Source: Lachnoclostridium sp. An196 (GTDB taxonomy: Bacteria > Bacillota > Clostridia > Lachnospirales > Lachnospiraceae). Taken from it: a stretch of 64,000 nucleotides of DNA. The position numbers and the translations under genes are program-made. The stretch covers positions 248,001-312,000 of the forward strand of contig NZ_NFJZ01000001.1 in the NCBI RefSeq assembly GCF_002160135.1. Reading direction: 5' to 3'. Position 1 is the first letter of the stretch; every line of letters starts with the position of its first letter. The notes beneath the pieces are model-generated. The model made no database searches and was not told the origin of the DNA. It worked only from the letters and a program-made list of their open reading frames with translations. This document shows, piece after piece, positions 21,307 to 26,395 of this stretch.

Positions 21307-22881
21307 CAGTTTGGAAAAGAGCGTGACGATGGTATGAGATGCAGTGTTTCAGATTACAAAAACTTCTACAGTGTTGTTCAAAATAATAAACTGGTATATC
21401 TCTTCGGAACAGGGATATCTTCAAGCCTGACCGGGAAAGTATATTCATGGAAGAAGTGGATTATGGATGGCACAGGATATATGTCAGACGCTGCCCGCGC
21501 GGAGGAGATCAGGGAATCCATCAAAGCGGATGATTCTACCGGCAATTTATTGGCAGAAGTGAAGTCTGTCCTTGAGATTACCAAAAAGGAAGGTACATAT
21601 TCGAAATGGATGCAGGATTCGTTCGAGACAAACTGCGTAACGAACCGCCCTCTGACAGAAACGTTGAAAAAACTTCTTATTACACAGGATATCTTCGCAA
21701 CTACAAATTATGATCTGCTGCTGGAGCAGGCGACAGGTCTGTTGGCGCTTTCCTACGAACAGGCAGACCAGGCGTTTCTGATGCTGGATAACGGCAAAAG
21801 CGATGCGGTGCTTCATATTCACGGAATCTATGACTCTGTCGGAGAGACTGACAACATTATAGCAGATGAGGAGCAGTATGCGGCGATACTGAATGACAGG
21901 GGAGCGCAGTTTATCCAGCAGATTTTGGGTACAAGGACGCTTATTTTTGTGGGTTGCGGTCAGACAACAGAGGATGCTAATATTGCTCAGTTTATACGTT
22001 TTGCGAACGATGTGCTGCACATTGACCGGGATTATTATTTCTTGTGCAGAAGCGGGGAAGCGCCGGATGACCTGCCTCCGTTTATAAAATCCGTGCCATA
22101 TGGTGATGAATACGATGACCTGCCGCTTTTTTTAGAGGAAGTGGCACAGATACGTTTGAGATCTAGGATCGAAAATAGTCCGATAGTCTCAAGGACCGCC
22201 TTTACGGAAAGAGTCGCAGATGCGTACGGATTGGCAGAGTACCACTACTCGCAGCAATATTTGAAGTTTTGCGGCAGGAATGTGGAAATGGCCCGGCTTT
22301 GGAATTTTTATGAGACGGATCGGCCGTTTCTTTGGTGGGCGGTCACGGGGCAGGGGGGTGCAGGAAAGAGCCGCCTGGTGCTGGAGTTTATTCGGAAAAA
22401 TACGGCGTATTTTTTTGGATTCTTTCTGAACTGTTCAGTCGAATTGGACTGTGCAAAGAACTTTCAGCCGTTCAACGATACGGTTGCGATTGTTGATTAT
22501 GTAAAGGGGAATGAAGTCAGGATAGCGGATACCGTCTCTTTATTGATTGATAAGTTTACGGATTTGCCGTATAAACTGCGGATCCTTTTTATAGAAAGGG
22601 AGAATACGACGGAATTTGGCTCGTGACATTACAGTCTGACAACTGCATTTGATATATATCACCGGGCAAAGTTTAATGATGCCGAATACAATCTGGAACC
22701 AAGCACAAGAAAACATCGTTTTTTGTATCTGGACGATCTGGATGAGGCCTCTGTGGAAGAACTAATAGGAGAGATCTGTAAGAAAGGTGGTCTGCCTGCG
22801 GACGCGTACAGAAACAGAAAGTTAAAGGAGCTTCCTGTATAATTCAAATATAGGGAATTCCAAGAAAGGCGGTTGATAAAA

Positions 22882-22954
22882 AGATACCTCAGAGTAAAAT
22901 AAGATTTACTGACTTTGCCGGTTAGTACAAATCTTATAGAACAGAGAGGTATCT
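22882..22954 (+). promoter_or_regulatory. Leader hairpin masking the IS110 transposase ribosome-binding site
   Basis: AGATACCTC (22882-22890) pairs perfectly with GAGGTATCT (22946-22954), and the inner arms TAAGATTT (22900-22907) and AAATCTTA (22929-22936) also pair perfectly. The outer right arm includes the GAGAGG ribosome-binding site of the transposase (ATG 22958). Folding of an incoming host transcript would hide this site, whereas transcription starting inside the hairpin would not. This matches the usual protection of IS elements against read-through expression. Confidence 0.7.
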
Positions 22955-22957
22955 GAA

Positions 22958-24244
22958 ATGAAGTATAACACACAAAACGCTAAGATTGCATCCATTACTG
23001 AAAAAACTTTGATTGTTGGCATTGATATTGGAAGTGAAACCCACTTTGCCCGTGCATTCTACTGGCGTAACTACGAATACACAAAGAAGGCTTTTGAATT
23101 CAGCAACACGGAAGAAGGTTTCCATTCCTTCAAAGCCTGGATGGAGGATCTGTCAGCAAAGCATGGCAAAACCGCTGTAATTCCCGGAATGGAGCCGACC
23201 GGTCATTACTGGTTTGCTCTCGGGAAGTTCCTGCAGGATAACGGGATGAGGCCGGTGCATGTGAATCCCCATCATGTGAAGAAATCGAAAGAGCTGGACG
23301 ATAACAATCCCAACAAGAATGACCGTAAGGACCCGAAGACCATCGCTGGTCTTGTGAATGAGGGGCGTTTCTCGTACCCTTATATACCGACTGGCGTCTA
23401 TGCGGAAATCAGAAATTTATCGAACTTGCGGTTTCAGGCACAGGAAGAGCTTACCAGAGCCAAAAACCGGCTTGCCAGATGGTTCGCCATCTACTTCCCG
23501 GAGTATAAGGACGTTTACAGGGATATCAAGGCAGTCAGTGGACGGATGGTGCTGCAGGTGGCTCCTCTTCCGGATGACATCCGGAAGCTGGGTGTGGAGG
23601 GTATAAACCGGATCTGGAGGGACGCAAAGCTGAGAGGCGCCGGAATAAAGAGGGCAAAGACCCTGGTAACGGCTGCAGAGCACAGCGTCGGCAGCAAGGA
23701 ATCGCCGGAAGCAGCCAGGATAGAGCTTAAAATGCTGTTGCATGATATAGATGTATACGCGTCAAGAGTGGAAGAACTGCTCAGCATGTTGGATGCAAAG
23801 CTGAGCGAAATTCCCTATATCGATAAACTGCTGGAGATTAAAGGGATAGGGAAGATTACGGTCAGCGGGTTTATAGCAGAGGTTGGAGACATCAGACGTT
23901 TCGATGATCCAAAACAGTTGCAAAAGCTGGCAGGATATGCAATCGTAGCGAATGAATCCGGGAAGCACAAAGGAGAAAGCCGGATCAGCTACAGGGGACG
24001 TAAACGCCTGAGATATGTGTTGTTTGAAGCGGCGCTGTCACTGATCGCAAGGAATCCGGAATTCAGAAAGATCTACGAGTATTACAGAACTCGGGAGAAA
24101 AATCCGCTGAAGAAAATGCAGTCTTTGGTAGCGGTTGCGTGCAAAGTGATACGAGTCTTTTATGTGATGTTGAAAAAGGGCGTGGATTATGATCCGGAGA
24201 AGATGATGGGGGATATCCGTAGGCTGGAATTACATGCGGCATAG
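22958..24244 (+). CDS. IS110 family DEDD transposase/recombinase
   Basis: A 428-residue protein. The N-terminal RuvC-like DEDD domain has D23 in VGIDIGS, the glutamate in GMEPTGHY and the aspartates in NKNDRKDPK. A coiled helical section precedes a C-terminal Tnp_20 domain (IKGIGKITVSGF), in which NESGKHKG carries the serine used for strand exchange. The length is normal and the frame intact, so the enzyme may be active. It is directed by an RNA encoded in the element's own non-coding end. Confidence 0.93.
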   Translation: MKYNTQNAKIASITEKTLIVGIDIGSETHFARAFYWRNYEYTKKAFEFSNTEEGFHSFKAWMEDLSAKHGKTAVIPGMEPTGHYWFALGKFLQDNGMRPVHVNPHHVKKSKELDDNNPNKNDRKDPKTIAGLVNEGRFSYPYIPTGVYAEIRNLSNLRFQAQEELTRAKNRLARWFAIYFPEYKDVYRDIKAVSGRMVLQVAPLPDDIRKLGVEGINRIWRDAKLRGAGIKRAKTLVTAAEHSVGSKESPEAARIELKMLLHDIDVYASRVEELLSMLDAKLSEIPYIDKLLEIKGIGKITVSGFIAEVGDIRRFDDPKQLQKLAGYAIVANESGKHKGESRISYRGRKRLRYVLFEAALSLIARNPEFRKIYEYYRTREKNPLKKMQSLVAVACKVIRVFYVMLKKGVDYDPEKMMGDIRRLELHAA

Positions 24245-24758
24245 AAGACGAGAACAGAAACTTGATAACCAAACCTGTCACGGTTGAATTGAGCGCATTC
24301 AGTAAGCATTGTGAGTTGAATTCAGCTGTGACAGGGCATCTGAAACGGGTGCGGAATTGTCGCCGGTGAAACGTCCACCGCAAGGTGCTGGAACGAGGAA
24401 GCATACAGGAAGTCAGTAAACTTAAAACAAAGAATGAGCCAGTAGTCGGCAGGAATAATCACCAGAGGGTACGACCCTGAGAAGGAGCTAAGCTGACACC
24501 CTGGTTATGGGCAGGCGGAACGAAGGAAGTGGGGACCCCACGGAGACGAGGGTGATCCTGGTAGACACGGGAGGTGCGCTGCCGTAGATGGATGGGGATA
24601 CACAAAGGCCATGTAAAGCGATAAATCAAGACGTTTTACTTCGTGTACCCAGAACCAGCTATTTTCGTACCAGATACCGAGAAATACCCATACCTTCGGC
24701 TCATTCATCTGAGATAGAAACTCGAAAAATCCTTTATTTTAAAGGAAAAACCACTTGA
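24245..24758 (+). ncRNA. Non-coding tail of the IS110-type element, candidate bridge/seek RNA
   Basis: More than 500 bases without a convincing gene, rich in paired segments. A clear hairpin has CCTGTCAC (24274-24281) pairing with GTGACAGG (24328-24335). ATACAGGAAG at 24403-24412 is exactly complementary to the first ten bases across the left IS junction (CTTCCTGTAT, 22831-22840), as expected of a right-donor guide. AAGGAGCT at 24482-24489 equals the host sequence up to and including the core (22825-22832), as expected of a left-target guide. I did not find a convincing right-target guide. The RNA's exact ends cannot be set from sequence alone. Confidence 0.65.
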
Positions 24759-26395
24759 CTTTATAGGGAGGACTATGCGGGAAAATTCGAACAGTTAAGG
24801 TATCGCCCGCTTTTTCTGCAGATGTTTGTGGAAGCATGGATCGGCAATGGATGCCTTGCGGTAGAATATAATGGGTATAAGCAGCTTATTCAGATCGTGG
24901 TAAAACGTGAGCAGGAACGGATCCTCGGATTGGTTGGTGGTGATGTCAGGGTATTTAACGCCTTGATCCATGTCATGATCTGTGCAGGGCTTGCTGACGG
25001 CTTATTTCTGGCTGAGATAAAAGACTGGTATCCGGAGGAATGGGGGATGATCCACTCCTATGCGAAAAAACATGCGGTATCAGGTGTACAAAGAACAGAT
25101 TTTTTGACGGGACTTTTGAAGGATGCGGCACAGGATATTTTGACCGGAACTGAAAAACTGCATGTGCTGTATCCGGATATTATCAAAGAATATATGTTTC
25201 TATACTACTTGGACGGGGATGATATCGTGGAATTGTCACGAAAACTCTGGAATACCGTCCCGGAGGATTATAATGCGTTCCTTGGCAGATGTCTGACTGA
25301 TTTCCAGCATGAGGATCATCTGATTGCATTTATTCGTGAACAATCTTCGGATTATGGAAATCTTAACGCGATGGCGGTGCGGCAATCGCTGCTTGCGTTT
25401 AAGATCATTGCCTCGGAGGAGGATGCCAGATACTTCTTGCAGAGAGATTTGGAGGAGTATAAGTATTGGAAAGAAGTGCCCGTTACGGCGGAAAATTCGG
25501 AACTTTGTCTGCAAGGACTCTATTTGTGCGTGCGACAGCTTTTTGGATGGTCCAGGCAGGAAAGCTTTGAAGCAATTGATTTAGTGGTGTCTTTTGAGGC
25601 TGTCGGCGGGCTTTGTGTGACAAAGGTACAGCATTTACTGGAGTTTGCACATTATCTTATTGAGAAAGACTGTGTGACCAGCGCGCAGAATGTGATACGA
25701 AAGGCAGAAGCGGCTCTGGCTGATCTGGGCGATTCGGAAGAAAAGAAAGAATTGTACCTGAGTATTCAGAGAGAAATCATAGTATCTGACGTATATTATA
25801 AAAAATGGGATGACATTGAAAAGAGACAGAAGGAAATCACTCAGAATACCAACTTCTCTAATGAACGCCAGTCAGAATTATATGCATATGTTCTGTTTTC
25901 AGGCGCACTGAAATGCCAGGAGACACTGGAGTGGAGCGGTGAACATCTGCTGATGTTTACGGATGCGCTGCAGGATTATGCGGAGGACTACGCCGCAGGA
26001 CGGCGCGGGATATATTTTAATGATAAAGTGCATTACTATTATCTCCACGCAAAGCTGATAAGTACAGAAGTAACCGCGACAGGCGCTTTTCTGGCCGGGA
26101 TGAGGGAAATCGCTTTAAAATGGATTGACGGGTTGATTGACGAAATAAAAAACAATATGATGATCTCGGATTTTGCAGGACTTTTGGTTGGGGCGAGGGC
26201 ACTGAAGGTTGGTTTTGATGATTCTGTGACGGACGAGATGACAGCGGCTTATTTAGAAGAGGCGGATGAACTGCTGGCATGTTATCCGGACAGTGAGCTT
26301 CTTGCGGAAAAAACCATTGATCTGTGGGAAACCGCGTACGGAGAACAATATAAATCTCTGTACCCCGAAATCTGATAGACAGGGCATACACGCTT

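What the first reader, a model, noticed from the sequence alone, without database searches (positions are those of the whole stretch)
24245..24758. Guide-like matches in the IS110 non-coding end
ATACAGGAAG (24403-24412) is exactly complementary to the donor junction CTTCCTGTAT (22831-22840), and AAGGAGCT (24482-24489) equals the target bases up to and including the core (22825-22832). Both fit the donor- and target-guide logic of bridge/seek RNAs. They agree with a boundary deduced independently from the host reading frame. The RNA lies downstream of the transposase, as in IS1111 types.
Basis: partly seen in the sequence, partly recalled or inferred. Interest (0 to 1): 0.72.

Follow-up and report, generated by a model that had tools for sequence, protein, structure and literature searches.

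The report
Jumping gene guided to ribosome-binding sites
This 1.94-kb bacterial jumping gene carries a small RNA whose four short guide segments match its own ends and its landing site, and its relatives are steered mostly to the ribosome-binding signal in front of genes, which the inserted end appears to rebuild.

Summary
Its donor guide, CT core and right boundary are wrong. Across 74 insertions of relatives, the loop at 24481-24487 (..AAGGAG) matches each copy's own left flank; positions -3 to -7 covary (permutation p=2e-4 each), and naturally retargeted copies (TGGAG, AATAG, AGTAG, ACGAG, GGGCAG) match their own new flanks. The other guides are: right target guide 24460-24463, right donor guide 24524-24529, left donor guide 24569-24573. 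They lie in two internal loops supported by compensatory changes, with the top-strand guide first, as reported for IS1111 seekRNAs and opposite to IS621. ATACAGGAAG at 24403 occurs in 1 of 26 relatives with the same end (chance about 0.04). An empty site in another genome shows the junction lies inside GGAG, so the element is about 22831-24770. The programmed target is a Shine-Dalgarno-like sequence, AAGGAG|G: 35 of 51 insertions have a start codon and open frame just downstream. The window's own copy sits inside a degenerate SIR2-like gene instead. All of this is comparative; no RNA or transposition was observed.

The parts
22831..24770 (+). whole insertion sequence, 1940 bp (junction ambiguous within GGAG: 22827-22830 equals 24767-24770)
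   Evidence: flank comparison, empty site of a relative, host frame K-E-D-Y-A across the joined flanks
22825..22830 (+). left target AAGGAG (host), ending in the junction dinucleotide AG
24771..24773 (+). right target GAC (host)
22831..22836 (+). right donor CTTCCT (left end of the element)
24766..24770 (+). left donor GGGAG (right end of the element)
22958..24244 (+). DEDD transposase, 428 aa
   Evidence: PF01548, PF02371; NF033542 IS110 family RNA-guided transposase; PDB IS621 match
24432..24610 (+). conserved guide-RNA core (bridge/seek RNA); true RNA ends unknown
   Evidence: alignment A1, structure counts
24439..24504 (+). target-binding loop: outer stem 24439-24442/24501-24504 and 24445-24450/24492-24497, inner hairpin 24466-24469/24475-24478
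24460..24463 (+). right target guide (CACC)
   Evidence: right-flank positions 2 and 3 covary, p=2e-4 each in 61 insertions; Bacillales CTAAA/GTTAAA match
24481..24487 (+). left target guide (GAAGGAG)
   Evidence: 74 insertions, positions -3 to -7 p=2e-4 each
24505..24587 (+). donor-binding loop: outer stem 24505-24510/24582-24587 and 24514-24516/24578-24580, inner hairpin 24533-24535/24556-24558 and 24537-24540/24549-24552
24524..24529 (+). right donor guide (AGGAAG), pairs with CTTCCT
   Evidence: switches with the left end: CTTCCT 38/39, CTTCTT 3/4, CATTCC 11/12
24569..24573 (+). left donor guide (GGGAG), equals the right end
   Evidence: GGGAG, AGGAG, GAGAG and GGAAG types switch together with the right end, two exceptions
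24755..24760 (+). TTGACT, -35 half of the promoter expected at the circle junction
   Evidence: sequence; 17 nt to TATAAT across the joined ends
22838..22843 (+). TATAAT, -10 half of the circle-junction promoter
   Evidence: sequence

Best explanation
22831-24770 is an IS110-superfamily insertion sequence with a long (428 aa) DEDD transposase and a downstream bridge/seek RNA. Shown by comparison: the RNA has two internal loops; one holds a right and a left target guide (24460-24463, 24481-24487), the other a right and a left donor guide (24524-24529, 24569-24573), and all four change in step with the DNA they should pair with. The target spelled by the guide is AAGGAG|G, a Shine-Dalgarno-like sequence with a near-invariant AG at the junction. 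Inferred from the family: the element excises as a circle; the joined ends form a TTGACT-17 nt-TATAAT promoter that transcribes transposase and RNA; the RNA-protein complex pairs with donor junction and target and exchanges strands next to AG. Most relatives land in ribosome-binding sites in the gene's orientation, and the right end (GGGAG plus host G) again offers a ribosome-binding site before the start codon.
For: Left target guide: 88% agreement in register against 22-38% when slid, p=2e-4 at five positions, 74 insertions. Natural retargeting in concert: TGGAG, GGGAG, AATAG, GAAAG, ACGAG, AGTAG, GGGCAG; guide changes at least 13 times on the transposase tree. Right target guide p=2e-4 at two positions. 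Donor guides switch with the ends. Two-loop structure: 43 double-change cells against 15.9 in shuffles, 0/500. Empty site. Insertions before start codons: 35/51, against 32/99 AGGAGG sites (p=2.8e-5) and 12% of random positions.
Against: No RNA, circle or transposition was observed. The window's own RNA folds no better than shuffles (z 0.18), and its right target guide fits only the first right-flank base. The window copy sits in a coding frame, not before a start codon. Donor-guide switches follow clades, so independent events are few. Against AAGGAGG sites the enrichment before start codons is not significant (35/51 vs 17/34, p=0.11).
Confidence: 0.93

Rival explanations
1. One reading: core CT, right end at 24758, target AAGGAG-CT-TTATAGGG, donor guide ATACAGGAAG at 24403-24412.
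For: Exact 10-nt complement; the host frame is kept.
Against: ATAGGGAG recurs at the right end at unrelated sites; the empty site has no such bases; ATACAGGAAG is in 1 of 26 relatives.
Confidence: 0.02
2. The transposase itself, not the RNA, reads the GGAG site; loop and flank agree because both are shared by descent.
For: Most copies share AGGAG in both.
Against: Loop and flank change together between close relatives, and independent pairs on the tree go with the target and not against it for AGGAG versus other motifs (median p=0.03). Flanks are host DNA at unrelated sites, so they do not share descent with the loop.
Confidence: 0.03
3. The RNA-guided mechanism is right, but ribosome-binding sites are only a by-product: AAGGAGG is common before genes, and insertions inside genes are purged.
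For: 17 of 34 nearby AAGGAGG sites are themselves before start codons; the window copy and others lie elsewhere; relatives in Bacillales target GGGCAG|TTTA.
Against: The guide stays on Shine-Dalgarno-like motifs across much of the clade (67 of 85 guides read AGGAG), and the right end keeps GGGAG/AGGAG/GAGAG/GGAAG, all Shine-Dalgarno-like.
Confidence: 0.45

Closest known systems
IS1111-type seekRNA elements (ISEc11, ISKpn4, ISPa11; Siddiquee et al. 2024, PMC11187229)
   Same: Non-coding region downstream of the transposase; two target-matching segments with the top-strand match 5' of the bottom-strand match; expected promoter at the circle junction; natural retargeting.
   Different: Transposase 428 aa against 330-350 aa; no clear subterminal inverted repeat recognised by eye; target is Shine-Dalgarno-like; donor guides mapped here too.
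IS621 bridge RNA (Durrant et al. 2024, PMC11208160; Hiraizumi et al. 2024, PMC11208158)
   Same: Two internal loops, one for target and one for donor, each with a guide for either strand; DEDD transposase related to IS621.
   Different: IS621 RNA lies upstream, guides run left then right in each loop, core is CT; here RNA is downstream, right guide comes first, junction dinucleotide is AG.
IS110 subgroup with long transposases (395-455 aa), some with downstream non-coding regions (noted in PMC11187229)
   Same: Transposase length; a downstream non-coding region is reported for some IS110-family members.
   Different: Guides of such members are not described in the sections read; relation on a tree not tested (no references held).

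Membership tests
IS110 superfamily (RNA-guided) | DEDD/RuvC N-terminal domain and PF02371 C-terminal domain | tested here: met
   PF01548 4e-26, PF02371 3e-25; NF033542 232.8 bits, cut-off 140
IS110 superfamily (RNA-guided) | guide RNA with segments matching target and donor, both strands | tested here: met
   covariation of all four guides
IS110 superfamily (RNA-guided) | transposase binds the RNA and recombines through a circle | not testable with these tools
   needs the bench
IS1111 group | long non-coding region downstream of the transposase | tested here: met
   526 nt downstream (24245-24770) against 127 nt upstream (22831-22957)
IS1111 group | top-strand guide 5' of bottom-strand guide | tested here: met
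   24460-24463 before 24481-24487
IS1111 group | transposase of 330-350 aa | tested here: not met
   428 aa; so not filed as IS1111, although it works like one
IS1111 group | subterminal inverted repeats of 7-17 bp | tested here: inconclusive
   only an imperfect match by eye (CTTCCTGTATAATTCAA against CTCCCTATAAAGTCAAG); no formal test
IS1111 group | transposase inside the IS1111 clade | not tested
   no ISfinder reference set held
IS621-like IS110 (upstream RNA, CT core) | RNA upstream of the transposase | tested here: not met
   guides lie downstream
IS621-like IS110 (upstream RNA, CT core) | CT core dinucleotide | tested here: not met
   junction lies in GGAG

The most novel reading that the evidence does not exclude
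A clade of RNA-guided insertion sequences has adopted the ribosome-binding site as a genome-wide docking site: it inserts between a gene's promoter and its start codon, is transcribed by the host promoter, and rebuilds a ribosome-binding site from its own right end so that the gene downstream stays on.
Probability: 0.5. Interest if true: 0.78.

Novelty: new variant of a known kind. Interest (0 to 1): 0.62.

Why it matters
A guide that spells the Shine-Dalgarno motif gives a mobile element very many similar sites in a Gram-positive genome, often outside genes and in gene orientation, and could explain how such an element spreads at low cost. The clade also offers a natural series of retargeted guides with matching sites, and a four-guide map for a downstream-RNA element, so the reprogramming rules of this type become directly testable. 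No paper found in the held library reports ribosome-binding sites as a target of an IS110-type element; subscription journals, preprints and supplements were not searched.

Tried and rejected
Rfam: nothing above threshold; a group-II-intron reading suggested by eye has no support there. ATACAGGAAG as donor guide: rejected. CT core: rejected. CCCT at 24475-24478 as right target guide: rejected, it pairs in the inner hairpin and changes with its partner. CACCCTGG at 24497-24504 as right target guide: set aside, part of it is the outer stem and it does not follow the right flank. Empty site of the window's own gene: no homologous site in 145 relatives. Some automatically assigned left ends are doubtful (L097 wrong by eye, L222 odd) but were left in the test. 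For the AATAG group (L222-L225, L210) the right-end pattern stopped two bases early; those rows were left in.

Full report
What is there. The window holds the only copy of an IS110-family element in this genome. Its transposase is 22958-24244 (+), 428 aa, with PF01548 and PF02371, NF033542 'IS110 family RNA-guided transposase' and a PDB match to IS621. About 520 nt of non-coding sequence follow it, against 127 nt before it.

Boundaries. Relatives were fetched by protein, by DNA, by left-end pattern and from plasmids. At unrelated sites the left flank ends in (A/T)GGAG or a variant ending in AG, followed by CTTCCTGTATAAT or a relative of it. The right end reads CTTGAC..ATAGGGAG, then usually a host G. 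Because ATAGGGAG recurs at unrelated sites it belongs to the element. The empty site of one copy (L015) was found in another genome (G005, L271)..TTTTCAAGGAG|GTTTTTTTCAATG, with no extra base. The junction is therefore inside GGAG, and AG is the part shared by nearly all targets. The element is 22831-24770, and the host frame reads K-E-D-Y-A across the joined flanks.

Left target guide. The loop 24481-24487 was compared with the left flank in 74 distinct insertions. In register 88% of bases agree; slid by 1-3 bases, 22-38% do. Positions -3 to -7 each exceed 5000 re-pairings (p=2e-4). Natural retargeting is clear: TGGAG (L005, L022, L071, L081), GGGAG (L152, L164), AATAG (L223, L210, L157), GAAAG (L165, L158), ACGAG (L161; all), AGTAG (L289) and GGGCAG in Bacillales plasmids (L291-L293). 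There are mismatching copies too (L024, L027, L070, L135, L222). On a transposase tree the guide changes at least 13 times and the target 15 times; independent pairs for 'AGGAG or not' go with the target and never against it (median p=0.03).

Right target guide. On the 5' side of the same loop, 24460-24463, the bases opposite right-flank positions 2 and 3 covary in 61 insertions (p=2e-4 each). Bacillales copies give a striking pair: CTAAA against TTTAG and GTTAAA against TTTAAC. In the window's own copy this guide fits only the first right-flank base.

Donor guides. AGGAAG (24524-24529) pairs with the left end CTTCCT; it reads xAGAAG where the end is CTTCTT and GGAAT where it is CATTCC, with one exception in each group. 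GGGAG (24569-24573) equals the right end and changes to AGGAG, GAGAG or GGAAG with it; right ends of L157, L165, L103, L167, L164 and L159 were read only after the guide had suggested them, and fit, while L100 does not. These switches follow clades (7 changes each on the tree), so they are fewer independent events than the counts suggest.

Structure. Two internal loops with outer stems and inner hairpins were counted on 23 diverse sequences: 92.5% of cells paired, 11 pairs with double changes, 43 double-change cells against 15.9 in shuffles, 0 of 500 reaching it; slid versions fall to 29-50% paired. RNAalifold finds the inner hairpins and the donor stem on its own. The single window sequence folds no better than its shuffles, so the case rests on covariation.

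ATACAGGAAG is present but is found in 1 of 26 relatives with the same CTTCCTGTAT end, and a match of that length to the end regions arises in about 4% of resampled sequences. It is rejected.

Target meaning. Of 51 insertions with enough flank, 35 lie just before a start codon (4-13 nt) with a frame of at least 60 aa, against 32 of 99 AGGAGG sites nearby (p=2.8e-5), 17 of 34 AAGGAGG sites (p=0.11) and 12% of random positions. One annotated case is an insertion before an ABC transporter gene in Roseburia (L294). After insertion the right end plus host G reads GGGAGG, again Shine-Dalgarno-like. Whether this is an evolved lifestyle or a by-product of the motif is open. The window's own copy does not follow the pattern: it interrupts a coding frame.

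Mechanism and comparison. Downstream position and guide order match what Siddiquee et al. describe for IS1111 seekRNAs; IS621 has the opposite order and a CT core. The transposase length does not fit IS1111, so the element is filed as an IS110-superfamily element that works like an IS1111 one. The joined ends would form TTGACT-17 nt-TATAAT, in line with the circle-junction promoters known in these families; this step, the excision and the strand exchange are inferred, not shown.

Noticed in passing
window 21334-26375: The interrupted host gene has a SIR2_2 domain (weak LmuA and ThsA profile hits) and carries an in-frame TGA at 22624-22626 besides the insertion: a broken defence-like gene.
   Followed up: partly
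window 22882-22954: A strong hairpin (z -3.0) at the left end pairs GATACCTC with GAGGTATC and so covers the likely ribosome-binding site of the transposase; similar sequence is present in relatives.
   Followed up: partly
L062, L066, L073 right ends: In the CATTCC sub-clade the right end alone carries TTAACA-16 nt-TATTAT pointing into the host gene, a possible outward promoter.
   Followed up: no
L157, about 190-200 nt downstream of its left donor guide: The right end (GGAAG) is followed directly by CTTCCTGTTATT, which looks like another left end: possible tandem or circle-like junction.
   Followed up: no
G268:C15 419-432 and 2320-2333: Two left ends on one strand 1901 bp apart, suggesting head-to-tail copies.
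   Followed up: no
L291, L292, L293: Bacillales plasmid relatives (43% identity) carry guides for GGGCAG|TTTA instead of the Shine-Dalgarno motif, apparently just after gene ends.
   Followed up: partly
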